Virus record (IMG/VR): IMGVR_UViG_3300044632_001473
Location: 1-59,911 of that record
Direction: 5' to 3' (one strand)
DNA from: a virus
Length of the DNA: 59,911 nucleotides
Under the pieces are notes generated by a model that saw only the letters and a list, made by a program, of their open reading frames with translations, was not told the DNA's origin and made no database searches. The position numbers were made by a program, and so were the translations under genes. Numbering within the stretch: position 1 is the first letter of the stretch; the number at the start of each line of letters is the position of its first letter. Positions 12,634 to 32,772 of the stretch are shown here, piece after piece.

Positions 12634-12906
12634 CTAAATGTGTTTTTTTATTATATTAATTGCTTCTTCGTCACTCATAAAATCAACTCCAGCAACATAT
12701 ACAGGACCCGTATCTAAGTTTTCTTTTTTAATATAAACCGTAGGTAATGAGTTATGTCCAGTCTGATTTACTACCTCGTTCCAAATTTTTTGGTTATTTG
12801 TAATTTCAATTTCAGTATATGGTATTGATTCAATTCTCAATCTTTTTTTTAAAGATTTACAATGAATACAATCATTTAAAGTAAATAAAATTATAATATT
12901 AGACAT
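12634..12906 (-). CDS. Glutaredoxin-like thiol oxidoreductase
   Basis: 90 residues, the usual glutaredoxin length. The active site C-I-H-C is at residues 13-16 after the first beta strand, and the cis-proline motif SLPTVYI is at 53-59. The fold order (beta-alpha-beta-alpha-beta-beta-alpha) fits. The active-site pair is not the common CPYC. It lies 4 bases downstream of the thioredoxin gene and is the last gene before a terminator. Phage glutaredoxins usually reduce ribonucleotide reductase; no such enzyme is in this window, so the partner is unknown. Confidence 0.85.
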   Translation of the reverse strand: MSNIIILFTLNDCIHCKSLKKRLRIESIPYTEIEITNNQKIWNEVVNQTGHNSLPTVYIKKENLDTGPVYVAGVDFMSDEEAINIIKKHI

Positions 12907-12910
12907 AATT

Positions 12911-13216
12911 CTACAAAGTATCTAAAATATTAGTGTATACACTATCAATATTAGCACCAACTGAACGGTTTACTAATGTAGTTCCGTTATAAATCATTAC
13001 GGTTGGAACTGTAGTAATGTTTAATTCTCTTGCAGAATCCATATTTTCTTCAATATCCAATTTAACAAAGGTAATATCTGAGTATTTGTTTGACAAATTT
13101 GATAACCTTGGTGTTAGTGCCTTACATGGACCACACCATGTTGCTGTATATTGAACTAATACTTTATTTCCTTGTGATAACAATTGTGATAATTGTGTTG
13201 CGTTTACGTTTTGCAT
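12911..13216 (-). CDS. Thioredoxin
   Basis: 101 residues with the classical active site W-C-G-P-C-K at residues 27-32 and the cis-proline in TTVPTVMIYNG (P71). The length and strand order match bacterial thioredoxin. It sits between the AAA+ ATPase and the glutaredoxin gene, probably in one operon, giving the phage two dithiol reductants for ribonucleotide reduction or protein thiols in the cytoplasm. No signal peptide is present. Confidence 0.93.
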   Translation of the reverse strand: MQNVNATQLSQLLSQGNKVLVQYTATWCGPCKALTPRLSNLSNKYSDITFVKLDIEENMDSARELNITTVPTVMIYNGTTLVNRSVGANIDSVYTNILDTL

Positions 13217-19720: not shown

Positions 19721-20935
19721 CTAAATAAATATCTGTTTAATCTCATTTAATACAATATTTTCCACCTCTTGATGTGAAATTCCGTATTTTTTTGATACAT
19801 GTGTTATTGCTTCTTGTATTTCTTGGTCTTCTTTAATGAATTCTATTGCACCAGTATTACCTTGATTACAATATGGGAACTTCTTACACTTCTCTTTAAC
19901 CTTGACAAAAACACTATCTGGTCCTCCCCATTTAGGAAAGTTTTTATCTTTAACCGCTCTACCTTGATATTCACTACTTGGTCCGTCTATCTTTAATGGA
20001 TTCTTACGTCCTCCCTTTGTTGTCTTACCAAATGCCGGTACATCAAATGCACCTGAAGATGACGAAGTTGTTGCTTCTTCCACTTCCTCTTCTTCGTTTA
20101 AATCCATATTTGGGATGTGTGATATCTTTCTTTTAACTGTACTTGATTTACCAAATAATGGTGCTGAATATGCTCCTGATGAACTTGAGTCAGTTTCTTT
20201 AGCTTCAATCTTTTTCATTTTCGTGTAGTATGATGGGTCTTCCGATAAATGGTTTGTATCAATTTCGTGATTCTTTTCTTTATTATCAAAATTATTTTTT
20301 ATTAATTCTATATGACCTTCTCCCACAGTCGCTATAACTCTATAACCTTTTTTCCTATAATTTTTAATTTTGGTTACTAAATTTTTATCTCTAATATAAT
20401 TGAAGACATCGGTTAATTTACTCAATTCAGTCTCAGGTTTTCCTGTATCTTTAGGAAAACACAAGTTATACATTAGTTCAATATCTTCTTCGTCTGGTGT
20501 TTTTGGGTTTTTTATCCCAAAACTTTTTATCCATTCAATTCCTTCGTCATTTAATAAATGTGACATTTCTTGTGGGTAACTGGTTTGTCCAACAATAATC
20601 ACATAAATCGCTGCCATTACTTTGTTAGGTGATAATGACGTTTCTGATTGCATTTCTTTAAAAAGTGATGATTTTGGATTTGTAACATTTGTTTCTTTAC
20701 CATCCCAAGAATCATTTATAAAATTGGTGAAATATGTTTGTAATTCATTTTGAATTGCTTCTTGTTCACCTCCCTTTTCATATATGTTATCATCGTCACC
20801 ACCCTCACCCATAAAAACTATTTTATCATTTGGGTTGAAATTTTTTTTAACATAATTTGAAACCTTATCAACATCATCCATGTTATAATGTTGAACTCCA
20901 AAAATTAAAGAATCTCCAATTTTTAAAATTTTCAT
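19721..20935 (-). CDS. Hypothetical protein with paired SSSSGA motifs (404 aa)
   Basis: The N-terminal 220 residues form an alpha/beta domain (MKILKIGDSLIFG, IVFMGEGGDDD, VIATVGEGHIEL) faintly recalling TraB/ChaN-type folds, not certain. The middle has two matching segments, SSSSGAYSAPLFGKSS and SSSSGAFDVPAFGKTT, about 60 residues apart, each after an acidic linker. The C-terminus is helical (ITHVSKKYGISHQEVENIV). The start is adjacent to the stop of the 79-residue gene. Function unknown; a virion or assembly role is possible from the neighbours. Confidence 0.55.
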   Translation of the reverse strand: MKILKIGDSLIFGVQHYNMDDVDKVSNYVKKNFNPNDKIVFMGEGGDDDNIYEKGGEQEAIQNELQTYFTNFINDSWDGKETNVTNPKSSLFKEMQSETSLSPNKVMAAIYVIIVGQTSYPQEMSHLLNDEGIEWIKSFGIKNPKTPDEEDIELMYNLCFPKDTGKPETELSKLTDVFNYIRDKNLVTKIKNYRKKGYRVIATVGEGHIELIKNNFDNKEKNHEIDTNHLSEDPSYYTKMKKIEAKETDSSSSGAYSAPLFGKSSTVKRKISHIPNMDLNEEEEVEEATTSSSSGAFDVPAFGKTTKGGRKNPLKIDGPSSEYQGRAVKDKNFPKWGGPDSVFVKVKEKCKKFPYCNQGNTGAIEFIKEDQEIQEAITHVSKKYGISHQEVENIVLNEIKQIFI

Positions 20936-21174
20936 TACTTAACCGATTTTAATGCACTCTCCCAAAATGACTTTCTTTGCCATAATGTTTTAAATAATTC
21001 AACCACTACCTTAGTTGATAGGTCAACTATCTTATCGTCTATCTTTTTAACCCCTAACTCATCTTGAATCATTTTAACAACCATTTTATGTGCCTGTGTT
21101 GTTTCCATAAAAGATTTAATCTCTTTCTTGGTAATTCTTTCAATTTCTCTTTTATCTTGTTCTGTTAGTGCCAT
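20935..21174 (-). CDS. Small helical protein (79 aa)
   Basis: Unrecognised, highly charged and entirely helical in appearance (MALTEQDKREIERITKKEI). It has no Cys and no membrane segment. Its stop and the next start share one base, so it is coupled with the 404-residue gene. Confidence 0.65.
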   Translation of the reverse strand: MALTEQDKREIERITKKEIKSFMETTQAHKMVVKMIQDELGVKKIDDKIVDLSTKVVVELFKTLWQRKSFWESALKSVK

Positions 21175-21176
21175 TA

Positions 21177-21704
21177 TTAGTTATTGTTTCTTTTTGTAAT
21201 TAATGGTTCCATTGCAGTTTTAAATGTTTCCTCAAATTTAGCCAACTTTTCTAAAGCGGTTCCTGTTTCTGTAGTTAACTTTAACATATCTGCATTTATA
21301 TAAACTCCGTTTTCCTCACCAGCAATAAATACAAAACTAACGTCATCATCGGTTAAGACACCATCTAATCTAATTTGATTTTTATTAATTGTCATTCCAG
21401 GTTCAAAATCAACGATTTGTGAAACTTGTTGTCTAAAATTATCAATAATGGCTGAAATTGCTTGTTTTTGGTCTTCCATTAATTGCATATCCGTTTCATC
21501 CGTAGATAACATATTAACTTCAACATCATTAATAACTATAAAATCGTTTTTTTGAGTTTGAGTTTGTTCTGGTTCTTGTGTTTGTTGAGTTACTTCTTGT
21601 TGCTCTCTTAGGACATTCATAGACGTTTTTGATTCATTAAGTTTCCTTATTGTATTCAACATCTTTTTAGTGTCGTCATATCCTGTCATTTGGTTGTTTT
21701 GCAT
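21177..21704 (-). CDS. Hypothetical protein (175 aa)
   Basis: A helical N-terminus (MTGYDDTKKMLNTIRKLNES), a Gln-Thr-rich linker (about 40-52) and a C-terminal alpha/beta domain (about 53-170) of low complexity in charge. No known family. It overlaps the amidase-like gene by 29 bases and lies 2 bases before the next gene, so it is inside an operon of possible assembly genes. Confidence 0.65.
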   Translation of the reverse strand: MQNNQMTGYDDTKKMLNTIRKLNESKTSMNVLREQQEVTQQTQEPEQTQTQKNDFIVINDVEVNMLSTDETDMQLMEDQKQAISAIIDNFRQQVSQIVDFEPGMTINKNQIRLDGVLTDDDVSFVFIAGEENGVYINADMLKLTTETGTALEKLAKFEETFKTAMEPLITKRNNN

Positions 21705-22296
21705 TGTTAAAAAATATTCTAAAATTAAACGAAGGGTTTATATCTGTATAAATACTTGAAAAGTTGGATTTACATACAATCCCGTGGAAATTTGATGCTC
21801 TCTCTATATATCCTTGAGATGGTACTATCTGTTTGAAAATAAGGTGTTTTTCACATAAGTCTTCACATAACTCCGCTAACGAACTCATTTGACTATCAGT
21901 ATATGAATCCCAAAAATAGTAATTCCTCCAATTTTTTATATGTGGTTCGGACCTATATGGGTCGCCAATCCAATTATTAAGGACACCAGTGATGGTATTT
22001 TTATTTAACCACCCCAAGTTCTCAATTGCAATTTTAATCTGTTTTTTGTCAATTGTGGGGTCATTAAAGGTATTTGAGGTATGGTTGGTATCAAACAATT
22101 GATATATGACCCCCAATTTAGAAACAACAAAATGGGGAACATCTTCATATTCCCCATTCTTCCTATATTTTATCTTATTTAAAAAGTCGTCTAATCTTCT
22201 TTGAGTATCGTATAAAAAAATTTGTGATTTTTTTGTTTTCTTTTTTGTAACATTCAACTTTTTCTTATCTAAAATTTCTACGTCTTGGACTAACAT
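21676..22296 (-). CDS. N-acetylmuramoyl-L-alanine amidase-like protein
   Basis: 206 residues. The segment PHFVVSKLGVIYQLFDTNHT resembles the core of the amidase-2 (T7 lysozyme, PGRP) fold, YTDSQMSSLAELCEDL matches its conserved helix, and FHGIV plus IYTDINPSFNF match the zinc site near the end (H171, D185). The expected first zinc histidine after the first strand is not seen (IFLYDTQ), so activity is uncertain. It would cleave the stem peptide from muramic acid, for lysis or local entry. No signal peptide; overlaps both neighbours by about 30 bases. Confidence 0.6.
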   Translation of the reverse strand: MLVQDVEILDKKKLNVTKKKTKKSQIFLYDTQRRLDDFLNKIKYRKNGEYEDVPHFVVSKLGVIYQLFDTNHTSNTFNDPTIDKKQIKIAIENLGWLNKNTITGVLNNWIGDPYRSEPHIKNWRNYYFWDSYTDSQMSSLAELCEDLCEKHLIFKQIVPSQGYIERASNFHGIVCKSNFSSIYTDINPSFNFRIFFNNAKQPNDRI

Positions 22297-23848
22297 TTCT
22301 TGATATCACATTTTTTGGGGTCGGTGTTGGGGTTATTATTTCTTCTTCGGACGACGGTATTATAACTTGATTGTTTTCCAAATCATATATTATTTGATTT
22401 GGATTGTTATCATCTTTTTCCCAATATAAATCTTCTACTTGAGATTCTGTACTATAATCTATTGATTCTGACGTTTCCATTACCACCTCGGTTTCTAAAT
22501 CCTCCGAAATTACCAAGTCTAACGTTTGTGGTTGGAACTCGGTTAAATTTTTTTTTTCATCTTCTTCTGAAGATGTGTCATCAATTTGAATTTCGTCTAT
22601 GATTTGATTTTCCTCTTCTATTGATTCTTGATTAAATTCGTTAATTGCATCTTCTAACAATGAAGTTGGTATTTCATCAACAAATTTTTCGTCAGTGTAA
22701 CCCTCTGCAGGGGAGTTAAAAAAAGAATTTTCTCTTGCTATAACATTTATTTTATCCAAATATGTTGGAGTTGGTGTTGGTGTACCTGTTTCTGTTGGTG
22801 TGGGTGTTGGTGTAGGTGTATCAGTAGGTAAAGGTGTTGGAGTTTCGGTTAAGACCAACATGTCACTAACCGGTTCTTTTTTCTCAACCTCTTCATTATA
22901 TTTTTCCGCAGCCTGAGTTAAAAATTCATTAGGTGGGGGTGGGTTAAGTAACACCTCTTCTAATTTTTTTAAATCATTTTCAGATAATCTAAGTCTAGAT
23001 ACTTCTGCAACAATATCTTTAGCCTCTAATGTTATTTTTTCATCCACAACTTCATCTTCATCAATATGTGGTTTCGTGGTTTCAATCTCATCTTTACGTT
23101 TATTCATTATTAAACCATTAAAGGCAATAATTAAAGCAACCGCTAATGGGTCAAATACAATTACAATAATGAATATAAAAAATTTAACGACAGTGTTTAA
23201 TTCTAATCCAAACGCATCGGCCACAAAACGAAAACCGCCAACTTCTCTTTCAATTCCAATATTTTTGTTTCTTATTGAATTAATTGAATCTGCGGCAATA
23301 TTATTATCTTGGGTTAGTTTATTAATTTTTGCCGATATTGATGTTATTTCTTTATCTGCAGTTTTAACCATCTGAGTTAAACGAGATGTTGATCCATTTT
23401 TTTCAATAACTTTTGATAAGTTATTTTCTTGTGAATTACGAATATTTTGTTGATTAGTTAACTGTGTAGTATAACGTGTAATTTCAGATTCGTTTTGTTT
23501 AATTTTATTTTGATAAACCGAAACTTCTCTTTCAATTTTTTGTAATTCTAAATTTTGTTGTTGAAATGCATTTGAAAGATATCCAAAAATACCTGCCGAT
23601 GTAATTAACATTAAAGTACCAACTGAAATAGTTAAATACCATTTATTAAATCCTTTAATATTATCCCATTCTTGTTTAAGATATGTTGCCGCAACTAATT
23701 TAGCAAATTCTAAAGAACCCGCCATAACCATTACAGATATTGCCGCACCAGCAAATAATACACCTAATCCTGTCACAGAAAAATAGGCGGCACATCCGGC
23801 AACAACAACCGCCGAAAGTCCAACCAAATATTTTAACCAATTATTCAT
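22265..23848 (-). CDS. Membrane protein with coiled coil and Thr-Pro linker (527 aa)
   Basis: Two hydrophobic helices at about residues 6-50 and one at 72-92 are followed by a long coiled coil (about 95-200), another membrane helix pair (about 218-250) and an acidic cytoplasmic tail. The tail has a Pro-Thr linker (about 338-365, [16 protein letters not shown]) like those of the fibre proteins, and ends in a basic stretch (NVSPRRRNFR). No enzyme motif. It may sit in the host inner membrane. The same linker in a non-fibre protein is notable. Confidence 0.7.
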   Translation of the reverse strand: MNNWLKYLVGLSAVVVAGCAAYFSVTGLGVLFAGAAISVMVMAGSLEFAKLVAATYLKQEWDNIKGFNKWYLTISVGTLMLITSAGIFGYLSNAFQQQNLELQKIEREVSVYQNKIKQNESEITRYTTQLTNQQNIRNSQENNLSKVIEKNGSTSRLTQMVKTADKEITSISAKINKLTQDNNIAADSINSIRNKNIGIEREVGGFRFVADAFGLELNTVVKFFIFIIVIVFDPLAVALIIAFNGLIMNKRKDEIETTKPHIDEDEVVDEKITLEAKDIVAEVSRLRLSENDLKKLEEVLLNPPPPNEFLTQAAEKYNEEVEKKEPVSDMLVLTETPTPLPTDTPTPTPTPTETGTPTPTPTYLDKINVIARENSFFNSPAEGYTDEKFVDEIPTSLLEDAINEFNQESIEEENQIIDEIQIDDTSSEEDEKKNLTEFQPQTLDLVISEDLETEVVMETSESIDYSTESQVEDLYWEKDDNNPNQIIYDLENNQVIIPSSEEEIITPTPTPKNVISRNVSPRRRNFR

Positions 23849-23851
23849 AGT

Positions 23852-24661
23852 CTATAAATAGTTTAAGAGACCAAAACTTTCATTTCTTAGTTTCTTAATT
23901 GCCTTATCACGTAATTGTCTGATACGTTCTTTTGTACATCCAAATTCTTCACCTAAGTCTTCTAAATTAGATTCAACACCCGTAAGACCATAATATCTTT
24001 CTATAATAATCTTTTCTCTATCGTCTAAAACACTTAACATTTGATTAACTTTTTTCTTAACTTCTTCAGGAGAATTTAAAATTGCATCAGGACTTTCCGC
24101 TTCTCTATTTGGTATAATATCAATTAATTGGTCTCCCTCTTCATTAATTTCTTTATATAAACCTATACAATATGGTAAGTTACTATGTACCGGTTGATCG
24201 TTATTATAAACAAAAAAATTATCTTCTTCGTTAATTTCGTCTTTTTTATATTTTTGAGCTTCAGTTACTAAATTTGATGGGAGTCTAATTGTTCTTGCAT
24301 TATCATTTAATGATGCCATTATTGATTGTCTAACCCACCATACTGCATATGATATAAATTTTAATCCACTTGTTGGGTCAAACCTTTCTGCTGCTTTAAT
24401 TAAACCGATATTACCTTCAGATATCAAATCCATTACATCCAATCCTTGATTTTGATACGTTTTTGCAACTGATATTACAAATCTTAAATTACCCTTCACT
24501 AATTCATCATATAAATCTTTCCTATGTTCTTTTGTGATTCTTTTATCATTTAATTGACTGAAGATTTCTTCTTGTCTGATGTGTGAAATAACAGGTATCT
24601 TCTTAATATCTCTGATATACTGTTGAATTTCCTCTGGATTGGTGATGGTGGATTTCTTCAT
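23852..24661 (-). CDS. RNA polymerase sigma-70 factor, RpoD-like
   Basis: 269 residues. It has region 1.2 (about 6-35), region 2 (about 52-130: NLRFVISVAKTYQNQGLDVM, LISEGNIGLIKAAERFDP, FISYAVWWVRQSI), a diverged region 3 and region 4 with a helix-turn-helix (about 213-262: EFGCTKERIRQLRDKAIKKL). Region 1.1 is missing, as in Bacteroidetes RpoD, and the region 2 sequence is very close to the Bacteroidetes primary sigma. It should direct host core polymerase to phage promoters. It differs from the small gp55-type late sigma of T4. Confidence 0.93.
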   Translation of the reverse strand: MKKSTITNPEEIQQYIRDIKKIPVISHIRQEEIFSQLNDKRITKEHRKDLYDELVKGNLRFVISVAKTYQNQGLDVMDLISEGNIGLIKAAERFDPTSGLKFISYAVWWVRQSIMASLNDNARTIRLPSNLVTEAQKYKKDEINEEDNFFVYNNDQPVHSNLPYCIGLYKEINEEGDQLIDIIPNREAESPDAILNSPEEVKKKVNQMLSVLDDREKIIIERYYGLTGVESNLEDLGEEFGCTKERIRQLRDKAIKKLRNESFGLLNYL

Positions 24662-24711
24662 TGGTTGGTTAATTTAAATTAAAATGTATATATAAAAATA
24701 AGAAAAATATT

Positions 24712-25158
24712 TTACTTATCAAAATTGTCAAGGAAGTTTTTTTCCTCAGGTGTTAAAGACTCAAAACCCATGGAATTTAACTTATCTAATACCTCATCCA
24801 AATCAAATTCAATTGATTTTTTTTTCTTATATTCTATTTTTAACATCGCACTTTCAGGTGTGTCGTCCTTAAAAACAAAATTATTGATTGGGTCAGGTAA
24901 ATTGACACTCACAATTGAGTTTCTTTCTAATAAAAAATAAAATTTAACACTATCATTTAAACATAAAAGGTAAATTTCTTCGGATAATTTTCCGTGGTCT
25001 AACTCGGAATCAAATATAACGATTATATTTTTACTATTTTCAACCACATATTTTACTGATTTAATTACGGGGGATTGACCTAAAATTTCTACACAAAAAA
25101 ATTCCATGTCTTCGTAATCGTCAAATATTCCATATACAAATAAAATATATGTCTTCAT
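24712..25158 (-). CDS. Hypothetical protein (148 aa)
   Basis: An alpha/beta N-terminal domain of about 90 residues, then a C-terminal tail (LDEVLDKLNSMGFESLTPEE) that resembles the short helical motif found at the ends of some Bacteroidetes membrane proteins (from memory). No catalytic motif. It lies just downstream of the presumed envelope genes and upstream of sigma. Confidence 0.6.
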   Translation of the reverse strand: MKTYILFVYGIFDDYEDMEFFCVEILGQSPVIKSVKYVVENSKNIIVIFDSELDHGKLSEEIYLLCLNDSVKFYFLLERNSIVSVNLPDPINNFVFKDDTPESAMLKIEYKKKKSIEFDLDEVLDKLNSMGFESLTPEEKNFLDNFDK

Positions 25159-25174
25159 ACTAAGATATAGTATT

Positions 25175-25816
25175 TTATTTTTTCTTTAAATTAAGTCTCC
25201 AATAAACACCACCACCCAAAAATGGTGATAATGTTCCGTTTGTCCCATCTGGTCCGACTATGTTAGATACCCCGACACCTAATTTATATAGGTGTTTATC
25301 ATCTTTATCTTTAAGAATAAACCCAAGACCAATTAAATTAACAACATTAGGTTTATCAAATTTTGCATCAACACCAAAATATAATTCATTCTTTCTCGGT
25401 AATGGTGTGAATATGGTATCTTTAATGACTTTTTGTTTTACTTTACTTGTGAATGAACGACCTAAAATTCTATTGTTAGATATTGTATCAAATAATGTAA
25501 CTGTACCGATATTACCCGGTAATTCTAAAATATCCTTTTTAAATTGTTTATTTTCGGAGTATAATTTGACTATAGCTTCTGTATCTACTTTTTGAATAAC
25601 CTGTACTTCAACTAATTTTTCAACTACAACAGGTACTTCAACTTCCACTTCAACCTCATATGGAATTGTATCATGTACTGCGTACGGTATTGAATCAATT
25701 TGTTTTACATATGTAATCCTATTTGGAAGATATCCTCCTGGATTAAAAAATTCTAAAATACATATTAATAATAATATTAATATTAATACGTGTCTGATGT
25801 CAAAAATTTTTTTCAT
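25175..25816 (-). CDS. Single-helix membrane protein with periplasmic repeats
   Basis: 213 residues. An N-terminal helix (HVLILILLLICILEFF; about 9-25) anchors it, followed by a Val/Glu-rich stretch (YEVEVEVEVPVVVEKLVEVQ; about 53-75), a coiled coil and a beta-rich C-terminal half with Gly-rich strands (LGVGVSNIVGPDG, FLGGGVYW). It is the last of three consecutive membrane or secreted proteins. A role in envelope disruption or spanin-like lysis is a guess from layout. Confidence 0.6.
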   Translation of the reverse strand: MKKIFDIRHVLILILLLICILEFFNPGGYLPNRITYVKQIDSIPYAVHDTIPYEVEVEVEVPVVVEKLVEVQVIQKVDTEAIVKLYSENKQFKKDILELPGNIGTVTLFDTISNNRILGRSFTSKVKQKVIKDTIFTPLPRKNELYFGVDAKFDKPNVVNLIGLGFILKDKDDKHLYKLGVGVSNIVGPDGTNGTLSPFLGGGVYWRLNLKKK

Positions 25817-25818
25817 GT

Positions 25819-26244
25819 TTACTTAAGAAGAAATAAAGATGTCATTATTACACCCGCAAAAGTACCAACCTTATAAAGAAAAGTTTTTCTTCGTTGTCCT
25901 TTTAATTCTTTAAATAAACTTTCAGATTTTTGTCTTTCTAAACCAAATTGTTCATCTTTTTTAGTGATGATAACCTCCAAATTAGAAATTTTTTGACTTT
26001 TGAGACTATCCTTTTGATTTAATAAACCAATATTCTGATCTTTTAAATTGATAACTTTATTTAATTCCACAATCTCCGACTTAGCTCCATCATAACGAAG
26101 TAAGTCTTGATAGACTAGTCTAGCAACTTTTGTTGATATGGTTACTTTAGTTGTATCTAATACTAAAACTTTAGTTGTATCTGTTTGCGAATAACTGCTC
26201 AAGCTCAACATTACCAATAGTGGTAATAGAATTAACTTTTTCAT
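25819..26244 (-). CDS. Secreted or anchored coiled-coil protein
   Basis: 141 residues. A signal peptide of Bacteroidetes type (MKKLILLPLLVMLSLSSYSQ, cleavage after Ser-Gln expected) is followed by a coiled coil (about 45-120) and a C-terminal hydrophobic helix (VGTFAGVIMTSLFLL). No lipobox Cys. Its first 74 bases overlap the 3' end of the previous gene in another frame, an arrangement known from phage spanin genes. An envelope role is likely; spanin function is inference. Confidence 0.65.
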   Translation of the reverse strand: MKKLILLPLLVMLSLSSYSQTDTTKVLVLDTTKVTISTKVARLVYQDLLRYDGAKSEIVELNKVINLKDQNIGLLNQKDSLKSQKISNLEVIITKKDEQFGLERQKSESLFKELKGQRRKTFLYKVGTFAGVIMTSLFLLK

Positions 26245-26506
26245 CTGTTTCGTTTTTAATTAAGGTTATGTTCTTTGTTACATTATTGATATTGCGGTCA
26301 ACCACATCAATATCTTTATCAATTGTAACGATTTGTTCGGTGATTTTGTGATTTTCAACCTGAACAGAATCTATATCATTTTGGATTAACTCTATTTTTT
26401 TATTATATCCATCAACGTCGGTTTTAATTCCGGTTGTTGTAAAAATATTCCAAGCCGCCAAAACGATTATGATTACTAATAAAATGTTGGATTTATTTAT
26501 CTTCAT
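26171..26506 (-). CDS. N-terminally anchored coiled-coil protein (111 aa)
   Basis: An N-terminal membrane helix (ILLVIIIVLAAWNIF; about 8-22) and a long coiled coil in the rest (heptads with Ile, Val and Asn). The topology and size match inner-membrane spanins of the Rz type. It follows the ClpP terminator and has a TATTTATA octamer 13 bases before its ATG, so it probably starts a new unit. The next gene begins inside it. Confidence 0.65.
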   Translation of the reverse strand: MKINKSNILLVIIIVLAAWNIFTTTGIKTDVDGYNKKIELIQNDIDSVQVENHKITEQIVTIDKDIDVVDRNINNVTKNITLIKNETDEKVNSITTIGNVELEQLFANRYN

Positions 26507-26519
26507 ATCTATCTTTTAT

Positions 26520-26527
26520 TATAAATA
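26520..26527 (-). promoter_or_regulatory. TATTTATA box before the envelope gene cluster
   Basis: TATTTATA reads on the gene strand 13 bases before the ATG at 26506 and directly after the terminator, a position expected for a promoter. Confidence 0.35.
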
Positions 26528-26532
26528 TGAAG

Positions 26533-26554
26533 AAAGGGGGTTTTATCCCCCTTT
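26533..26554 (-). terminator. Terminator after clpP
   Basis: An 8-bp stem AAAGGGGG / CCCCCTTT with a 6-base loop 6 bases after the clpP stop; on the minus strand it is followed by a short T-rich stretch. Confidence 0.65.
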
Positions 26555-26559
26555 AACCT

Positions 26560-27234
26560 TTATTTCTTCTTTTTAACAATTTCATCGATAATTCCGTAGG
26601 AAAGTGCTTCTTCGGACCCCAGCCATAAATCTCTGGTTGCGTCATTTTTAACTTGTTCTGCGGACTTTCCACAGTATCCACCTAATAACTCAAATAGGGT
26701 ATCATTGATTTTTTCCCATTCCACCATAGTAATACGAGCGTCTTGGATATTGCCACCAGCTCCTCCTGATGATTGGTGTAACATAGTTCTTGAGAATCTT
26801 AAAGACCCTCTTTTACCTTTAGTTCCCGCACCTAACAATACTGAACCCATAGATGCCGCCATACCAGTGTTGATGGTTCGGATGTCTGAAGTAATATACT
26901 CCATAACGTCCACCATAGATAAACCTGATTTAACAGACCCACCAGGACTATCAATGTGCATTGTGATATCATTATGGTCAATACTATCTAAGAACATTAA
27001 TTGAGCTTGTACGATGGTTGACATGTGGTCATCCACACCTCCAGCAACCCAAATGATACGTTCCATCATCAAACGTGAGAATACGTCCATAACGGTTACA
27101 TTCAAACTTCTTTCTTCTAAAATATATGGGGTTAAACTATCCTCAACTCTTTGGTTATAACGATGTAAGTTTAAAGAACCAACTCCGTGGTCTTTCGCGT
27201 AAAGACCAAAATCTTTGTACTGATTAGGTGTCAT
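26560..27234 (-). CDS. clpP: ClpP-like serine peptidase
   Basis: 224 residues, full length for ClpP. The catalytic triad is S128 in GMAASMGS, H153 in MLHQSSGGAGG and D202 in ATRDLW; the oxyanion-loop SPGGSV is at 96-101. The segment VMDVFSRLMMERIIWV is very close to the Bacteroidetes ClpP pattern, which points to acquisition from the host. Phage ClpP copies may work with host ClpX or serve in head maturation; no prohead signature is visible here. It lies 46 bases downstream of gp46 and is followed by a terminator. Confidence 0.93.
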   Translation of the reverse strand: MTPNQYKDFGLYAKDHGVGSLNLHRYNQRVEDSLTPYILEERSLNVTVMDVFSRLMMERIIWVAGGVDDHMSTIVQAQLMFLDSIDHNDITMHIDSPGGSVKSGLSMVDVMEYITSDIRTINTGMAASMGSVLLGAGTKGKRGSLRFSRTMLHQSSGGAGGNIQDARITMVEWEKINDTLFELLGGYCGKSAEQVKNDATRDLWLGSEEALSYGIIDEIVKKKK

Positions 27235-27280
27235 GATTGTAAATTTAGTTTATTCACAAATATAATGTATAATTTTTAAA

Positions 27281-29617
27281 CTAAGAAATTTTTGTTGTAA
27301 TAAAATCTACAGATGAAACATTCTCTTCTTTCTTAATCATAATGATATTATCTGACCAATTACGTATTAAAGAATTGTGTGATATGACAAGAATATGGTC
27401 AAAATAGTTTTTAATCTTTTTGAAGAATTCTCCCACCATTTCAAGGTTCTCGTCAGCAATTTTACCGAACACTTCATCCATAACCACGATGTTAGGTTTA
27501 GGTAATGACGATATCTTTGTTAATACACTACGAAGTGCTAATGAGGATATTGTTCTTTCGTAACCAGAACCCGCATTAAGGGGTTTAACTATACGTGTCT
27601 CAGTATCTATCATAATAAATTCAACCTCGTTCTTATCGTTTATATTCATTTCTAAAATGAAGTGACAACTATCAACCAATAAACGATATAATTCTTGATT
27701 GATTAATGGAATCATATTTTTAAGAATAATTTTAGATATTCCATTCTTACCATATACCGTTAAGTAAATCTTGAATACTGCAGATAACTCTTCTTCTGAT
27801 GTAATCTTTTTAATTAAGTCTTCATTAATACCAATCTTATCATTCATGTTTGAAATGTTGTTGGTGTGTCTTTCAATATTAGTATTGGTTTGTCTAATGT
27901 CTCCGTTTGCTGTTTCAATCTTTGTTTTAAGGGCGATTACTTCTGAATCAATCTTTTGATTCTCCTCAAGTTTCTTTTTATTATTTTCGTAATTGTCTAA
28001 TCTTTTTTGTTTACCGTCAATCTCCAATTGTTTTTGTTCTACCTCCAATTCATATCTTTCTTTACGAAGTTTATTTCTTTCGTAATTTTCAAATTCAATT
28101 TTTAATTTATCAAACCCTTCAGATTGTTCTTTCAATAAATCAAATTGACTTTGATTTAATTCTATATCTTTAATAATCTCTTCAATTTCCTTTTTAATCT
28201 TTTCAATTTCATCCGTATGGTCTACTTCATCTAATGCTCTATTACAAGTTGGACAAACAGTTCCTTCTTCAAATTGTTTAATTAATTTTTCTCTTTGGGT
28301 TTTTTCATATTTGCACGCAACATCAATTCCTTGAATATTTGCCATTTCACCTCTTAGTTCTTTGTGTTCTTCTTCATTATAGAATTGAGAAGGTTCTATT
28401 ACATTAACTCCGTCAGCATTTGTTTGACTGAGGTTTCTTTGTTTTGTTAAATCATCAACTTCTCTTTGTAATAAAACTGGATTAGTATTGATAAGTTCTT
28501 TATCTACGTCGTTGTTTCTTTTTAAGAATACTTCGTCTCTTTTCTTTTCTAACTTTTGTAAATCCTTTTCAAACTTACCTAATTCTTTTGTAAGTCTTAC
28601 AATTTCACTTTCAGAATTGATTATACTTTCCTTATGTGTTTCATTATCAGTTTCTAAACTAATTTTATTATATGTGTTGGATACTAATTTCTTAGACCAA
28701 TCATTGTACATCTCTTTAGCAATTTCTTCTTTTGCTTTAAGACTTTCTAAACCCATAAACTTTGTTAAAATCTGTCCACGAGCCGTTGGTTTAGATTCAA
28801 TTAATTCTTCTAAATTATAACCGGTAGTAAGAATGGTTGATAAGAAATCTTCTTGTGTACCAATTGCTGAAGATATAAACGCTTCGGTTTCTCTTCTTTG
28901 TTCACCTGATAAGTTTACAATAGAACCGTCTTCGGCTTTCTTAAAAAATTCTAATTCATTTTTAACAGTGTATTCACCTGACTTACTCATCTTACGAGAT
29001 GTGTTTCTTTCAATAACATAATCTTCACCATCAATTGTGATTTCACCACGAACACTTACGTCATTCTTATCGGTAAACCTATTGAAGATTTCTCCATTGG
29101 TTTTTGTTTTAGTGGTTGTATTAAAAAATAAGAACATTAATAAATCTACAGATGATGTGGATTTACCTCCGAAGTTCTTAGGTGTGGATTCAATTACTGT
29201 AATGCCGTCCAAACCTGTAAAATCAATAGTATTGTTATCACCAAATGAAAGAAAGTTTGAGAATTCAACTTTCTTGATGTACCATTTGTTATACCTGACC
29301 TTATTTTCATTTAATTTATCTATTTGAGTGTTGACCTTATTATCTAATCTTTCCATCAACTCCTCTTTAATAACTATGTTGTTATCCGAAAGAAAATCTT
29401 TCATCAATTTCTTTTGATATTGATGATCTAAGATATTGTCAGATGCCTCTAAAGACTCTAAACGTGTTTGATTAACGTTAGTTAAAGTCTTAGTGATTAC
29501 CTGAACGGTCTTTGCATTATATTTTTTCTCAAAATAAGATTTCACCCTTCTGATTTTTTCAGGGGTGAAATTTTCGGGTACATCTTCCCAAGTTACTTTT
29601 ATAAATGGATTACTCAT
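27281..29617 (-). CDS. 46: Recombination nuclease ATPase subunit, SbcC/Rad50-like (T4 gp46 type)
   Basis: 778 residues. An N-terminal ATP-binding half (FSNFLSFGDNNTIDF; P-loop PKNFGGKST near 145-153, with Pro in place of the usual first Gly), two long coiled-coil arms around a zinc hook CPTC (about 453-456), and a C-terminal half with a signature (GSGYERTISSLALR) and Walker B IVVMDEVFG near 712. With the gp47-like protein it forms a double-strand-break resection complex for recombination-dependent replication. The gp47 gene is upstream, separated by four other genes; its start overlaps the methyltransferase stop by 8 bases. Confidence 0.93.
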   Translation of the reverse strand: MSNPFIKVTWEDVPENFTPEKIRRVKSYFEKKYNAKTVQVITKTLTNVNQTRLESLEASDNILDHQYQKKLMKDFLSDNNIVIKEELMERLDNKVNTQIDKLNENKVRYNKWYIKKVEFSNFLSFGDNNTIDFTGLDGITVIESTPKNFGGKSTSSVDLLMFLFFNTTTKTKTNGEIFNRFTDKNDVSVRGEITIDGEDYVIERNTSRKMSKSGEYTVKNELEFFKKAEDGSIVNLSGEQRRETEAFISSAIGTQEDFLSTILTTGYNLEELIESKPTARGQILTKFMGLESLKAKEEIAKEMYNDWSKKLVSNTYNKISLETDNETHKESIINSESEIVRLTKELGKFEKDLQKLEKKRDEVFLKRNNDVDKELINTNPVLLQREVDDLTKQRNLSQTNADGVNVIEPSQFYNEEEHKELRGEMANIQGIDVACKYEKTQREKLIKQFEEGTVCPTCNRALDEVDHTDEIEKIKKEIEEIIKDIELNQSQFDLLKEQSEGFDKLKIEFENYERNKLRKERYELEVEQKQLEIDGKQKRLDNYENNKKKLEENQKIDSEVIALKTKIETANGDIRQTNTNIERHTNNISNMNDKIGINEDLIKKITSEEELSAVFKIYLTVYGKNGISKIILKNMIPLINQELYRLLVDSCHFILEMNINDKNEVEFIMIDTETRIVKPLNAGSGYERTISSLALRSVLTKISSLPKPNIVVMDEVFGKIADENLEMVGEFFKKIKNYFDHILVISHNSLIRNWSDNIIMIKKEENVSSVDFITTKIS

Positions 29618-30485
29618 TTGTCTTTTTTGTTTTATCTAACCACACATTACCTAATTTAACAAATATAGGATTAATTTCAAAACCCACAAACTCACAATTT
29701 AAATCTCTAGCAACAATTAATTCACCACCTGAACCTGAAAATGGTATTAATATTTGTGGAACACTATCTTTAGGTATTGATGAGGATATTAATTTTTTTG
29801 TTAACTCATAAGGTTTTTGTGTTGGGTGATTAATAATTTCGTGTTCTATATGATTTTTCTTTTCAGTCGGATGATACGCAGAATCACAATTTGTACAATA
29901 GAACCATCTTTCTTTTGCACCAGCTCCTCCAGCCAATGCTGACACTTTAAACACATCTCTTGGTAATGCACCATTATCATGTGCCTTATATGTCGTTTCG
30001 GTTTCACCTTTACTAAATCTTCCCTTAGTTGCCCTTCTTTTCTTACCTGCAGCATTTTTTAAAAAAGATTTTGTATACTCTTCTCTAACATCATCAGTAT
30101 TGAATATCTTTTCTTTCCCTTTCCATAAATGTATAATTGACTCATGTGACCTTTGCCAATCTTTTAATGATGGTGTAGTTTTATTTGTGTAATGCCAAAC
30201 TAACCATCTTTTAGTTTTATATTCAATGTCAACAAATATTTGTGCTAATATTTCACTAAATCCGTAAATAAAAATTGAACCGTGTGGTTTCAATACTCTA
30301 TAACATTCAGATATCCATATTTTATTCCATTCGTAATATTCCGACATAACTTGTTTATCGGAGTCATTACCGAAATCCTTACCAATATTATATGGTGGGT
30401 CGGCAATAATAACATCAATAGAATTATCCCCTAATTCTTTTATACCTTCAATACAATCTCTTAATATAACTTTATTTGGTAACAT
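29610..30485 (-). CDS. DNA methyltransferase, beta-class N6-A/N4-C type
   Basis: 291 residues. Catalytic motif IV (ADPPYNIGKDF; D29-Y32) comes first and the AdoMet-binding motif (ILIPFSGSGGELIVARDL) near residue 247, the order of beta-class enzymes. The segment between holds a zinc-ribbon-like CTNC and His residues (about 197-220), probably part of the target-recognition region, and HPTQKP before motif I. It immediately follows a likely restriction endonuclease gene (2 bases apart), so it is probably the modification half of a type II system. The last residues overlap gp46. Confidence 0.9.
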   Translation of the reverse strand: MLPNKVILRDCIEGIKELGDNSIDVIIADPPYNIGKDFGNDSDKQVMSEYYEWNKIWISECYRVLKPHGSIFIYGFSEILAQIFVDIEYKTKRWLVWHYTNKTTPSLKDWQRSHESIIHLWKGKEKIFNTDDVREEYTKSFLKNAAGKKRRATKGRFSKGETETTYKAHDNGALPRDVFKVSALAGGAGAKERWFYCTNCDSAYHPTEKKNHIEHEIINHPTQKPYELTKKLISSSIPKDSVPQILIPFSGSGGELIVARDLNCEFVGFEINPIFVKLGNVWLDKTKKTNE

Positions 30486-30486
30486 T

Positions 30487-31083
30487 CTATTTTTTTAATT
30501 CATATTCATATGTACAAATAATATCCAAATAATCCTCATTAACTTCAAACCATAATTGATTTGACATTGATTTATGAATAAAAAATTTATTGTCTTTTGA
30601 TTTGTATCCTGAAAACATTCCTTTTTTTCCAAATTTTTCAATCCACTCAATATTTTTAAAATCAATCTTTGATTTTATTAAAGAACCCCATTTAACAATA
30701 TGTTTATTAGATGTTTCATATGTTAAACATACCAAATATTTTTCAAATGATTCATCTCTTTTTTGTATTTCTTTATTTATTTCATCAATAGTTTTACAAG
30801 TTGTTAATCTATATGATGAAAGTTTAAATGTGTTTTTATTTTTACTTTTAATTTTGACCGCCTTTAATGAATTTGGTTCTCCCATAATATTCATATCAAA
30901 ACCAGACTTATGAGAACCAGATTTCCATAAAGAATCTCTACCACATCTTTCTTCTGCTTTGTCTGCGGTTATTTCCATAATTTCACCTTTTATATTAGTT
31001 TTACCTCTAGACCATTTATAAGTCTCAATAGTTTCATCTAATAATGCGTTAGAAAATTCTCTTAATTTTTCTTCTTGGTTCAT
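30487..31083 (-). CDS. Possible type II restriction endonuclease
   Basis: 198 residues, the usual size for small type II enzymes. A segment with Gly-Phe-Asp (D63) followed about 14 residues later by SLKAVKIKSKNK resembles a PD-(D/E)xK site, although the expected acidic residue before the Lys is not clear. The downstream pattern (FKLSSYRLTTCKTIDEIN, then KYLVCLTYE) and a C-terminal SNQLWFEV are of the style seen in such enzymes. Position next to a methyltransferase is the main support. It could also be a methyltransferase accessory protein. Confidence 0.55.
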   Translation of the reverse strand: MNQEEKLREFSNALLDETIETYKWSRGKTNIKGEIMEITADKAEERCGRDSLWKSGSHKSGFDMNIMGEPNSLKAVKIKSKNKNTFKLSSYRLTTCKTIDEINKEIQKRDESFEKYLVCLTYETSNKHIVKWGSLIKSKIDFKNIEWIEKFGKKGMFSGYKSKDNKFFIHKSMSNQLWFEVNEDYLDIICTYEYELKK

Positions 31084-31397
31084 TACTTAATTCTACTTTC
31101 TTCAAAGAACTCAATTATGGTGTTCAATGCCCATACAGAACCGGCGGTAACCATCCCGTCAAAAAATAAATGTAAAAACCAAACAGTTTCAAAATATTGA
31201 ACTGATAAACTACCTAATGTTAACGACATAAAAAATCCAACCCATGTGGAAGTACACAACGTACAACTAATCAGGTCTCCAAAAAATTTGGAGTGTTTCT
31301 TTATCCATGTTCTTTGATTTTCAAAAATTGCTCCCCATACTAAAATTGAGGTCATTCCATAAGCCGCTAATACCCAAAATAATAATATCATAATCAT
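31083..31397 (-). CDS. Small membrane protein, DUF1360-like
   Basis: 104 residues with three hydrophobic segments (about 2-24, 44-66 and 76-96) and a Cys motif (ISCTLCTSTWVGFF) at the start of the second, resembling phage DUF1360 proteins (C-x2-C before a Trp-Val/Gly-Phe helix). Function unknown. The stop overlaps the start of the endonuclease-like gene (TAATG). Confidence 0.65.
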   Translation of the reverse strand: MIMILLFWVLAAYGMTSILVWGAIFENQRTWIKKHSKFFGDLISCTLCTSTWVGFFMSLTLGSLSVQYFETVWFLHLFFDGMVTAGSVWALNTIIEFFEESRIK

Positions 31398-31457
31398 TTT
31401 TATTTATAATTAAAATATAAATAAAAGATTCAATAAAAAGAAATATATTGCCGGAAA

Positions 31458-31985
31458 TTATTCATCGTAAAGTGAACCTAAGTCACTATTTTTCATAAAT
31501 CTACCACGACCCATATTATTAATTGAGTTGGATATTTTATTCAAATCTTCTTTTAATTTTTCATTCTCTTTTGTTAATCTGTTTATTTCTTCCATATTAA
31601 CAACTTCTTTTACAACCTCAACAATTTTTTCTACAGGAACTTCTTTTATAACTTCTTTCACAACAGTTTTAGTTTTCCCTTCTTTTTTAACTTCCACTTC
31701 TTTTACAACTTCAACAATTTTTTCCACTACAATCTCTTTAATAACTTCCTTAATCACCTCCACCGGTACTTCAACAATTTTATCAACCTCTTTAATTACT
31801 TCAACTTCTTTAATTACTTCAACCGTTTCTTTTATTCTATTACCATATGGTGTTTCCCCATATTTCAACAAAGAAAACCCTCTTGCGAAGGTTTCTTTTG
31901 CTAATTTATCTATGTTGTCTATGTTATTTAATTCACAATATTGAATAAACTCACTATCCAAGATTAACGTGCTCTTCGGTTTCAT
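31458..31985 (-). CDS. Coiled-coil repeat protein with Glu-Val-Lys-Glu-Val motif
   Basis: 175 residues. A short N-terminal domain (MKPKSTLILDSEFIQYCELN) is followed by a low-complexity run (about 55-125) with many EVIKEV/KIVEVV units, and a helical C-terminus. The run is highly charged and beta-prone or coiled. Phage proteins with such repeats are often structural or spacers; nothing here shows which. The start overlaps the gp47 stop by 32 bases. Confidence 0.6.
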   Translation of the reverse strand: MKPKSTLILDSEFIQYCELNNIDNIDKLAKETFARGFSLLKYGETPYGNRIKETVEVIKEVEVIKEVDKIVEVPVEVIKEVIKEIVVEKIVEVVKEVEVKKEGKTKTVVKEVIKEVPVEKIVEVVKEVVNMEEINRLTKENEKLKEDLNKISNSINNMGRGRFMKNSDLGSLYDE

Positions 31986-32772
31986 TTTCTATATCTTTGA
32001 TATCGTTTATTCTAAAGTGTAAGAAGGGTTGTTCATTTGGTAAATCATGAAATGTATATTCATTTGTTTCAACATCGTATATTCCATACCCGTGATGTTT
32101 TACCGTCTCACCAAAATTTTGTTGTATGAGACTACCAACCATAATTGCATGACCTCCGTTTGGTAATGTGAATTGTTGTCTCTTGTGAATATCTCCACAT
32201 AATAATAAATCCAAATCAACAAAGTTTAATTGGTCATAGGCATCTTCAAACTCATAACCTAAATCGGTTGACAATCCCATAATTGGTCCGTGAAATAAAC
32301 CAACAGTTATTTTGGTCTCGTCTTTCGTAAATTCGGGACGTGAGTTATGTTGATATAGTGAATACACTACCCATTGTATATTTTCATCTATATAATCACC
32401 ACTATCTTTATAATAAGCAATATTTTCATTATCTAATAAATCTACCACAGGGCTAATACTATCTAATCGTTGTGTATTATTCTCTAAGAAATCATGATTA
32501 CCCGGTATAATTACTACATTACCCAAATGAGATAATTCTCTAAGAAACCAACTTGTTAACATCAGTTGTTCATTTGATATATTAATCTTTTGATGTGCGA
32601 TATCTCCAGCAACAACGATTCTTATATTATCCCAAGTTAATCCTTCTTCAACCCAATTCCAATGATGAACTCGTAATTCACTTAATAACTTTTCAAATTG
32701 TTCTTTATACAAATCATGCATTTGAATTGTACGAATATGTAAGTCGGCAATGTGTATTATTTTCTTGACCAT
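31954..32772 (-). CDS. 47: Recombination nuclease subunit, SbcD/Mre11-like (T4 gp47 type)
   Basis: 272 residues with the metallophosphoesterase motifs in order: IADLHIR (D10, H12), VAGDIAH, PGNHDFL, FHGP and CGDIHKR near residue 196. It lacks the long C-terminal domain of cellular Mre11, as T4 gp47 does. It pairs with the gp46-like ATPase for double-strand-end processing. The start overlaps the upstream nuclease gene by 16 bases. Confidence 0.93.
   Translation of the reverse strand: MVKKIIHIADLHIRTIQMHDLYKEQFEKLLSELRVHHWNWVEEGLTWDNIRIVVAGDIAHQKINISNEQLMLTSWFLRELSHLGNVVIIPGNHDFLENNTQRLDSISPVVDLLDNENIAYYKDSGDYIDENIQWVVYSLYQHNSRPEFTKDETKITVGLFHGPIMGLSTDLGYEFEDAYDQLNFVDLDLLLCGDIHKRQQFTLPNGGHAIMVGSLIQQNFGETVKHHGYGIYDVETNEYTFHDLPNEQPFLHFRINDIKDIENETEEHVNLG

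What the first reader, a model, noticed from the sequence alone, without database searches (positions are those of the whole stretch)
23852..24661. Phage-borne RpoD-like sigma factor of Bacteroidetes type
The protein has all main sigma regions and a region 2 almost like the host primary sigma, unlike the small diverged late sigma of T4. Together with the NusG-like factor it suggests that the phage takes over host RNA polymerase with host-derived parts.
Basis: partly seen in the sequence, partly recalled or inferred. Interest (0 to 1): 0.55.

Follow-up and report, generated by a model that had tools for sequence, protein, structure and literature searches.

The report
Phage sigma factor beside late-type sigma
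A virus, probably of Bacteroidota bacteria, carries its own version of the host's main transcription-start protein, and many of its larger relatives carry a second, very different one as well, which suggests a staged takeover of the host's gene-reading machine.

Summary
In detail: 23852-24661 encodes, on the minus strand, a 269-residue sigma-70 protein whose region 2.3/2.4 residues are Bacteroidota-type. It is not a recently stolen host gene: its phage clade (100/99) groups with Bacteroidota RpoD against other sigmas but lies outside the sampled cellular RpoDs, lacks about 14 residues of region 3 and has K for R at the -35 contact. Of 15 large relatives chosen for carrying it, 10 also hold a weakly gp55-like second sigma; nine have a strong T4-type capsid match with bS21 beside it, as in the published freshwater bS21 jumbo phages. 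Two promoter-like types replicate in held-out genomes: host-type TTTG-N-TAnnTTTG, and a phage-only box TATTTATA without -35 element, found at many structural genes. Phage -33/-7 sites relax the final G that hosts keep, and base composition does not explain it. A third type (TTT-N-TATATTAT), near replication genes, is clear only in the closest relatives. The sigma gene's last codons spell TATTTATA more often than codon use explains. Best reading: an early-made sigma for early/middle promoters, with gp55-like late control. Enterobacterial jumbo phage CBB is a precedent; this is a Bacteroidota variant. Sigma-to-promoter pairing is inference.

The parts
23852..24661 (-). RpoD-like sigma factor, 269 aa
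24293..24502 (-). sigma region 2 (residues 54-123)
   Evidence: Pfam Sigma70_r2 match; coordinates checked
23882..24037 (-). sigma region 4 (residues 209-260), with K244 where E. coli has R584
   Evidence: Pfam Sigma70_r4 match; K in 30/30 phage rows, R in 31/32 cellular rows
24692..24700 (-). -7-like box TATTTTTAT of a possible promoter of the sigma gene
   Evidence: a comparable box in 45 of 60 distinct upstream regions of the near clade, 0 of 10 in the far clade, (pattern chosen after looking)
24720..24724 (-). -33-like TTTTG of the same possible promoter; it lies inside the conserved 3' end of the upstream gene, so its conservation may be due to the protein
   Evidence: with -7 box in 42 of 60 vs 2.5 shuffled
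23853..23860 (-). late-type box TATTTATA formed by the last codons TAT TTA TAG of the sigma gene, just before the 527-aa gene
22265..23848 (-). downstream gene (527 aa, no PHROG match), next to the late-type box
24712..25158 (-). 148-aa gene directly upstream of sigma, an ortholog in the same place in three relatives (G001, G002, G008)
27257..27284 (-). host-type promoter-like site (TTAGTTT ... TATATTTG) upstream of the ClpP-like protease gene, ahead of the gene run that leads to sigma
   Evidence: same box in G001, G002, G008, not in G007
26560..27234 (-). ClpP-like head maturation protease
   Evidence: phrog_94 2.7e-35
21747..21754 (-). late-type box TATTTATA upstream of the 175-aa gene 21177-21704, also before its orthologs in G001, G002, G007, G008 (not G012)
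   Evidence: phrog_6386 3.1e-22; orthologs in G001, G002, G008

Best explanation
The protein is a working sigma factor of an old Bacteroidota-phage clade. It is probably made early, from a host-like promoter in front of its gene and/or the host-type site before the protease gene. It then binds host core RNA polymerase and steers it to phage promoters with a -33 box (TTT[T/G]) and a -7 box of the TAtaTT[T/A] kind, in which the G that host promoters keep at the end of the box is relaxed. These would be early and middle (replication) genes. A second, gp55-like sigma then reads the box TATTTATA without a -35 element at late structural genes, one copy of which lies in the last codons of the sigma gene itself. 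Shown: gene, family, phylogeny, second sigma in relatives, the two main motif classes, the relaxed G. Inferred: that the protein is active, which sigma reads which motif, and the timing.
For: The region 2.3/2.4 residues that read and melt the -10 region (roles by recall) are those of Bacteroidota RpoD, while parts of region 1.2, region 3 and the -35 contact K244 differ in a nearly fixed way: same architecture, altered details. Phage upstream regions without TATTTATA hold a real -33/-7 motif (information of the -7 box 6.31 and 6.97 bits against at most 1.92 in eight antisense and Markov controls). Its final G is 0.85 in host loci but 0.39, 0.54 and 0.36 in three phage sets; composition does not explain this: host regions as A/T-rich as the phage (G+C 0.26) keep G at 0.90, the G+C-richer half of the phage regions has 0.45 and 0.50. 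Class C (TTT-N-TATATTAT): among 25 genes scanned are matches to helicase (three members, orthologs), ssDNA-binding protein (three members), primase and helicase loader. TATTTATA genes: tail fibres, head protease, terminase, baseplate, tail tube, endolysin among 48 of G001. TATTTATA has no -35 element, as expected of a gp55-type sigma, and is at chance in Bacteroidota loci (5 sense, 4 antisense, 5.0 expected). Second sigma: best PHROG is late sigma phrog_234, best PDB chain is T4 gp55. Sigma gene: TATTTATA[AG] at its end in 44 of 55 thinned genes, last Leu codon TTA in 0.94 against 0.29-0.74 at 12 other conserved Leu columns.
Against: Class C hardly replicates: held-out G011 4 sense / 4 antisense, G005 5 / 0, and 6 / 4 over 743 far-clade genes; of ten held-out homologs of class C genes two carry C and three carry B. 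So a separate middle class is shown only near G001/G002. Class A is not enriched by my pattern in G002 (5/7) and G008 (4/5). Around the gp55-like gene, in the structural part of the genome, TATTTATA is only twofold over expectation (21 sense, 6 antisense, 11.2 expected). The -33 box alone is not clearly above one shuffled control (3.34 against 2.93 bits). The gp55 identity is weak: 1 of 9 family matches is over the cut-off, E 0.0012-0.004 to gp55, model pLDDT 62.9, gp55 not among the 50 fold matches shown of 63. The window, a 60-kb fragment, does not contain it. gp33 and gp45 were not found (0 of 15 each). No experiment links a sigma to a motif.
Confidence: 0.48

Rival explanations
1. The phage sigma reads the same host-type promoters as host RpoD and simply replaces it, for example after host sigma is inactivated or outcompeted; there is no separate middle class.
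For: Region 2.3/2.4 residues are the same as in Bacteroidota RpoD; host-type class A is enriched in G001, G007, G012, both held-out genomes and the far contigs; class C is weak outside the closest relatives.
Against: K244 at the -35 contact, shortened region 3 and a different region 1.2; phage -33/-7 sites have relaxed the final G that hosts keep, beyond what composition gives.
Confidence: 0.27
2. The RpoD-like sigma is the late sigma and reads TATTTATA; the gp55-like protein does something else.
For: The gp55 match of the second sigma is weak; TATTTATA lies at the RpoD-like gene's own end.
Against: TATTTATA has no -35 element although this sigma keeps region 4; the second sigma best matches late sigma families and lies 7-10 kb from the capsid gene in the nine contigs with a strong capsid match; the five contigs where it was not found have no strong capsid match, so may lack that part.
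Confidence: 0.1
3. It is a decoy that sits on host core RNA polymerase to silence host genes and starts no phage transcription.
For: Changed -35 contact and shortened region 3.
Against: The region 2.3/2.4 DNA-reading residues listed are kept in 30 of 30 (W108 in 29), which a decoy would not need.
Confidence: 0.08
4. It is a recent theft of, or contamination by, a host RpoD gene.
For: Nearest cellular sequences are Bacteroidota-group RpoD.
Against: 36-43% identity; own clade with 100/99 support outside the sampled cellular RpoDs; similar gene order around it in several phage contigs.
Confidence: 0.02

Closest known systems
Jumbo phage vB_PcaM_CBB (and GAP32), PMC5259590, passages read
   Same: T4-like jumbo phage with a full sigma (regions 2, 3, 4; CBB_513) plus a gp55-like sigma (CBB_244), no gp33 or gp45 found, and three predicted promoter types: host-like early, a -35 variant with many DNA-synthesis genes, and an ATAAATA late box
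   Different: Host is enterobacterial; late box there is ATAAATA, here TATTTATA in sense orientation; early type here is Bacteroidota TAnnTTTG; the sigma here groups with Bacteroidota RpoD
Group 2 jumbo phage sigma factors (Iyer et al. 2021, PMC7824862, passages read)
   Same: gp23-type capsid, no own RNA polymerase, minimal and RpoD-like sigma types; authors suggest the RpoD-like type could have come from cells
   Different: gp33 reported there, not found here (0 of 15); promoter classes and the tree of this clade are not in the passages read
bS21 freshwater Bacteroidetes jumbo phages (Chen et al. 2022, PMC9723584; abstract, section 4 part 1 and passages)
   Same: Probably the same group or close kin: 293-331 kb, GC 31.0-33.7%, bS21 on the opposite strand beside capsid genes, predicted Bacteroidetes hosts (relatives here: bS21, GC 30.0-32.3%)
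   Different: The words sigma and promoter do not occur in that main text; I did not compare its genomes directly
T4 gp55 late transcription (PDB 7d7c/7d7d)
   Same: Likely the model for the second sigma and the -35-less late box
   Different: The protein in the finding is not gp55: it has region 4 and matches RpoD; the T4 box TATAAATA is only mildly enriched in sense (53 against 31 expected; TATTTATA 182 against 39)

Membership tests
sigma-70 family | regions 2 and 4 | tested here: met
   Pfam E 2.6e-18 and 2.7e-12, above curated cut-offs
Group 1 RpoD (housekeeping sigma) equivalog | NCBIfam RpoD curated cut-off | tested here: not met
   TIGR02393 170.3 bits against a cut-off of 354
Group 1 RpoD (housekeeping sigma) equivalog | lies among cellular RpoDs in a tree | tested here: not met
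   outside the sampled Bacteroidota-group RpoDs; phage rows together 96/86, cell rows 80/80
Bacteroidota-type sigma | groups with Bacteroidota RpoD against other sigmas | tested here: met
   100/99 (57 rows; the 10 outside rows are nine RpoD-like proteins from records filed as phage but apparently bacterial, and one Microcystis phage sigma); cellular rows were found with patterns that include [KR]FISYAVW, a bias
T4 gp55 late sigma | best match to late sigma, no region 4 (this protein) | tested here: not met
T4 gp55 late sigma | same, for the second sigma of the relatives | tested here: inconclusive
   top PHROG phrog_234 at 1.8e-4 to 2.7e-3 for three members, top PDB chain gp55 at 0.0012 and 0.004; fold search inconclusive
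Group 2 (T4-superfamily) jumbo phage | gp23-type capsid | tested here: met
   PF07068 over cut-off in 10 of 15 relatives, nine of them at about 1e-63 to 1e-65; the window itself was not searched for it
Group 2 (T4-superfamily) jumbo phage | gp33 coactivator and gp45 clamp | tested here: inconclusive
   0 of 15 for PF16805 at E 1 and PF02916 at E 0.1; short or diverged families may be missed
bS21 jumbo phages | bS21 beside the capsid on the opposite strand | tested here: met
   bS21 in 9 of 16 records, on the strand opposite to the capsid in all nine, in relatives only; none in the window
Phage middle sigma | directs transcription of middle genes | not testable with these tools
   needs in vitro transcription or infection RNA-seq

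The most novel reading that the evidence does not exclude
In a Bacteroidota jumbo-phage lineage, T4-like control has been rebuilt with two phage sigmas on host RNA polymerase: an old Bacteroidota-type RpoD paralog that runs replication (middle) promoters without MotA/AsiA, reading a -7 box whose host G is lost, and a gp55-like sigma reading TATTTATA, the reverse complement of the T4 late box used in sense orientation. A late promoter sits inside the stop-codon end of the middle sigma gene, so that the two stages are physically joined.
Probability: 0.3. Interest if true: 0.66.

Novelty: new variant of a known kind. Interest (0 to 1): 0.5.

Why it matters
Phages of this kind turn up in many viral contigs and no close isolate was found in the collection searched. 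The work gives testable promoter classes for them, names the two sigmas that could run their cascade, and offers a natural RpoD variant in which the DNA-reading core is kept while the -35 contact, region 1.2 and region 3 have changed: a way to learn how Bacteroidota sigma reads its unusual promoters. If active, TATTTATA and the sigma genes would also be useful parts for expressing genes in Bacteroidota laboratory strains.

Tried and rejected
Recent host theft: rejected by the trees. Close isolate: no DNA match of window 20000-32000 in the phage collection; all 186 tblastn records under 60% identity, the best of the 60 listed about 34-36%; several top hits there are bacterial contigs filed as phage. 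T4 late box TATAAATA: 53 in sense against 31 expected, far less than TATTTATA. MotA and AsiA: none over cut-off in 8 of 8 (one MotA match at E 0.058 in G001), but no control genome rang, so absence is not shown. A two-component EM split gave a rubbish second component, so class C was taken from octamer counts, then tested on held-out genomes, where it hardly replicated; I lowered the claim for that. G at the -33 box does not go with G at the -7 box (p 0.31), so two clean sub-classes are not shown. Structural proof of the gp55 identity failed: weak model, gp55 not among the 50 matches shown of 63. Nine large window proteins between 36959 and 59849 gave no useful Pfam hit. Paper searches: TATTTATA with phage and promoter 0 papers, RpoD-like with phage and gp55 1, bS21 with jumbo phage and sigma factor 0; only open-access text is held. 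Counts across related phages are not independent; one search was thinned at 92% identity to reduce this. The 15 relatives were chosen because they carry the RpoD-like gene, so '15 of 15' for that gene is by construction.

Full report
WHAT IS THERE. The finding's coordinates are right; the gene is on the minus strand, 269 codons from ATG. It is a sigma-70 protein: Pfam regions 2 and 4, phrog_351 at 1.2e-55, and 85 distinct PDB sequences at E up to 0.001 (60 shown), the best being primary sigmas SigA and RpoS. NCBIfam's RpoD and RpoS models match, far below their curated cut-offs. The window is an IMG/VR record of 59,911 bases; all 43 genes that my caller found in it run on the minus strand. Neighbours are phage genes: ClpP-like head protease, SbcC- and SbcD-like proteins, primase, exonuclease, RuvC-like, DNA methyltransferases, tail fibre, transcription antiterminator.

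RELATIVES. Contigs are up to 335 kb. No record of the phage collection is close: 186 tblastn records, all below 60%. Of 15 long contigs (145-335 kb) chosen because they carry the gene, 10 have a gp23-type capsid match over the cut-off, nine of them very strong, and the same nine have bS21 close to it on the opposite strand; the window has none. That is the arrangement, size and roughly the G+C content (30.0-32.3% in five relatives) of the freshwater bS21 phages of Chen et al. 2022 (PMC9723584; abstract, section 4 part 1 and passages read), for which Bacteroidetes hosts were predicted.

ORIGIN. Nearest cellular proteins are Bacteroidota, Ignavibacteria and Kapaibacteria RpoD at 36-43% identity (the scan's patterns include [KR]FISYAVW, which favours such proteins). 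A first quick tree of 76 rows put the phage clade (100), the cellular rows (96) and several other phage sigmas, among them Lak phages and Salisaeta phage 1 on very long branches, together against Salmonella and Enterococcus RpoD at 86. For a careful tree, eight long or fragmentary rows (these among them) were dropped, 17 rows thinned out and six outside rows added: 57 rows. There the phage clade has 100/99; phage clade, two outlying phage sigmas and Bacteroidota-group RpoD together stand against the ten outside rows with 100/99; the phage rows group at 96/86 and the cellular rows at 80/80. So the sigma is of Bacteroidota type but not nested in the sampled modern RpoDs: an old acquisition or fast early divergence. 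The two outlying phage rows have long branches, so their join with the clade is less sure.

ANATOMY. Against 32 Bacteroidota-group RpoDs, 30 phage sigmas keep F102, I103, S104, Y105, A106, V107, W109, Q112, I114 in all rows. Differences fixed in at least 90% on both sides include K244 (30 of 30; R, E. coli R584, in 31 of 32 cellular rows), S117, N119, I125, residue 133 (Q in 29 of 30; the window itself has T) and region 1.2 residues E11, I12, D18, V24. E. coli 486-498 have no counterpart in 30 of 30 phage rows, 485 in 29. An AlphaFold model is fair for regions 1.2-2 and 4 and of low confidence at 142-176 (mean pLDDT 70.2); Foldseek finds sigma chains of RNA polymerase complexes (193 matches at E up to 0.001; the 50 listed are sigma chains).

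A SECOND SIGMA. In the same 15 contigs a family search found a diverged sigma (open frames of 232-242) in nine, one of them over the family's cut-off; tblastn added G012 at 54%, so 10 of 15. All nine contigs with the strong capsid match carry it, 7-10 kb from the capsid gene. A scan for it in viral contigs gave 146 encoding stretches. Its best PHROG is phrog_234, late sigma (1.8e-4, 2.7e-3, 4.7e-4 for three members), and its best PDB match is T4 gp55 (0.0012 single, 0.004 profile). The identity is likely, not proved: its model is poor (pLDDT 62.9), and the fold search returned general sigma chains at E 0.07 and worse, without gp55 among the 50 shown of 63. The window does not contain it.

PROMOTER MOTIFS. 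In 741 upstream regions of five relatives and the window, TATTTATA occurs 182 times in sense against 39 expected and 53 antisense; TATAAATA 53 times against 31. TATTTATA begins 10-29 bases before the start codon in 139 of 182 cases, has A or G in front in 80%, and no -35 element. TATCTTTG-type boxes with an upstream TTTG are enriched too: the Bacteroidota housekeeping promoter (TAnnTTTG, reported for Flavobacterium psychrophilum, PMC9723704, passages). Over all 1628 called genes class B (TATTTATA) is found at 242 sense / 85 antisense / 49.8 expected, class A at 95 / 42 / 19.6 and class C (TTT or TTG, 18-20 bases, TATATTAT) at 43 / 12 / 5.4. Orthologs share class: B 0.54 (permuted 0.16), C 0.29 (0.03), A 0.24 (0.05). 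In Bacteroidota-group genome loci (323 upstream regions) A is strong (91 sense, 14 antisense, 25.2 expected), B at chance (5, 4, 5.0), C absent (0, 0, 0.2). In further phage loci B is weaker than in whole genomes: 21/6/11.2 around the gp55-like gene, 17/10/8.0 around the RpoD-like gene; C is 3/0/1.6 and 16/2/1.8.

HELD-OUT TEST. Two further near-clade genomes and four far-clade contigs were fetched after the patterns were fixed. B replicates in each set (49/11/9.0 in G011, 46/14/9.9 in G005, 57/22/10.7 in G016-G019), and so does A (21/5/4.7, 33/9/3.6, 39/16/4.8). Genome by genome in the discovery set, A is not enriched in G002 (5/7/2.3) and G008 (4/5/1.9). C is clear in G001 and G002 (27/6/2.2 over 584 genes) but not outside: 4/4/0.9, 5/0/0.4, far contigs 2/2/1.3, and G012 of the discovery set 4/2/2.2; G007 and G008 have 6/1/1.7 and 6/2/0.8. 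Held-out homologs of class B genes keep B in 37 of 67 against a base rate of 67 of 415; of class A genes 5 of 19 keep A (base 33 of 415); of class C genes 2 of 10 carry C (base 7 of 415) and 3 carry B (all). I therefore treat C as tentative.

THE RELAXED G. Fitting one -33/-7 model to each set, leaving out regions with TATTTATA near the gene, the final G of the -7 box is 0.85 in host loci and 0.39, 0.54 and 0.36 in near, held-out and far phage sets. The -7 box carries 6.31 and 6.97 bits in two phage sets against at most 1.92 in eight antisense and Markov controls; the -33 box 3.11 and 3.34 bits, one control reaching 2.93. Composition is not the cause: the A/T-richest third of host regions (G+C 0.26) has G at 0.90, while the G+C-richer half of the phage regions (0.31, 0.33) has 0.45 and 0.50.

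FUNCTION OF THE CLASSES. PHROG scans took 25 of 26 class C genes, 46 of 48 class A genes and 48 of 54 class B genes of at least about 119 residues that bear one class only; C and A came from G001, G007, G002, G012, B from G001 alone; G008 was left out, and so were genes across piece borders. C: helicase phrog_62 (three members, orthologs), single-strand DNA-binding protein (three members), primase, helicase loader, DNA methyltransferases, glycosyltransferases, and terminase matches. B: tail fibres, endolysin, head protease, terminase, baseplate, tail tube, but also PhoH, endonucleases, chitinase. A: RNA ligase, protease, PhoH, methyltransferase, ParB-like, SbcD-like, many unknown, and one virion protein. 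The tables show only the 25 commonest families of 38, 84 and 56, so this is a tendency, not a test.

THE SIGMA GENE'S OWN SIGNALS. A host-like -7 box lies 15-75 bases upstream in 45 of 60 distinct regions of the near clade (antisense 7, shuffled 10.1), with a -33-like box in 42 (shuffled 2.5); in 10 far-clade regions there is none. The pattern was chosen after looking, and the -33 part overlaps the conserved end of the upstream gene. The host-type box before the protease gene is the same in the window, G001, G002 and G008, absent in G007. The last codons of the sigma gene read TATTTATA[AG] in 59 of 71 distinct genes and 44 of 55 after thinning; the last Leu is TTA in 0.94 against 0.29-0.74 at 12 other conserved Leu columns, the last Tyr TAT in 0.96 against 0.44-0.81 at four others; the next ATG triplet follows within 22 bases in 47 of 55. 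This points to selection for the DNA box as well as the protein end; selection for an A/T-rich start region of the next gene is a possible alternative.

READING. No RNA polymerase beta' match was found in 8 of 8 relatives' records, so host enzyme is probably used. A sigma with host-type DNA-reading core, a -33/-7 promoter set with relaxed sequence, and a separate gp55-like sigma with a -35-less box at many structural genes make a cascade the simplest account. Its closest precedent is phage CBB (PMC5259590, passages), which has a full sigma, a gp55-like sigma and three predicted promoter types. Iyer et al. (PMC7824862, passages) had already described RpoD-like sigmas in such jumbo phages. What I did not find in print, within the searches, is the Bacteroidota version, its tree, the TATTTATA box, and the overlap of that box with the sigma gene's end. 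Which sigma reads which motif remains inference.

Noticed in passing
24712-25158 (-): 148-aa gene directly upstream of sigma, orthologs in the same place in G001, G002 and G008; conserved C-terminal stretch like LDDVLDKI..GIESLTPEEKKFLDNF; N-terminal part unknown. A partner or regulator of the sigma is possible.
   Followed up: partly
L220:5001-5138: One relative's sigma reading frame stops after 45 residues although tblastn matches over the whole length: a broken copy or an assembly error.
   Followed up: no
G016:C1:50331-50525 (-): A further sigma region 2 match (2.0e-12, 206-aa frame) in a far-clade contig, stronger than the gp55-like matches: possibly a third sigma.
   Followed up: no
L257-L261, second sigma: The C-terminal part (LREMTSLSTKEIRISLKR) looks by eye like a helix-turn-helix, so the gp55-like sigma may keep a remnant of region 4, unlike T4 gp55.
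   Followed up: no
21747-21754 (-): TATTTATA inside the 3' end of the 206-aa gene, present before the orthologs of the 175-aa gene in G001, G002, G007 and G008: another late-type box embedded in coding sequence.
   Followed up: partly
L262, L270, L433 and fecal 'Bacteriophage sp.' clones: The phage collection holds contigs that look bacterial (Salmonella, Acinetobacter, fecal SigA loci) filed as phage, which inflate apparent phage sigma hits.
   Followed up: partly
G001 gene 212, G002 gene 108, G007 gene 68: By eye, a class C box follows directly after a terminator-like hairpin in front of an orthologous gene, probably the ssDNA-binding-protein matches.
   Followed up: no
12634-13216 (-): Two small thioredoxin-like genes side by side (phrog_22).
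   Followed up: no
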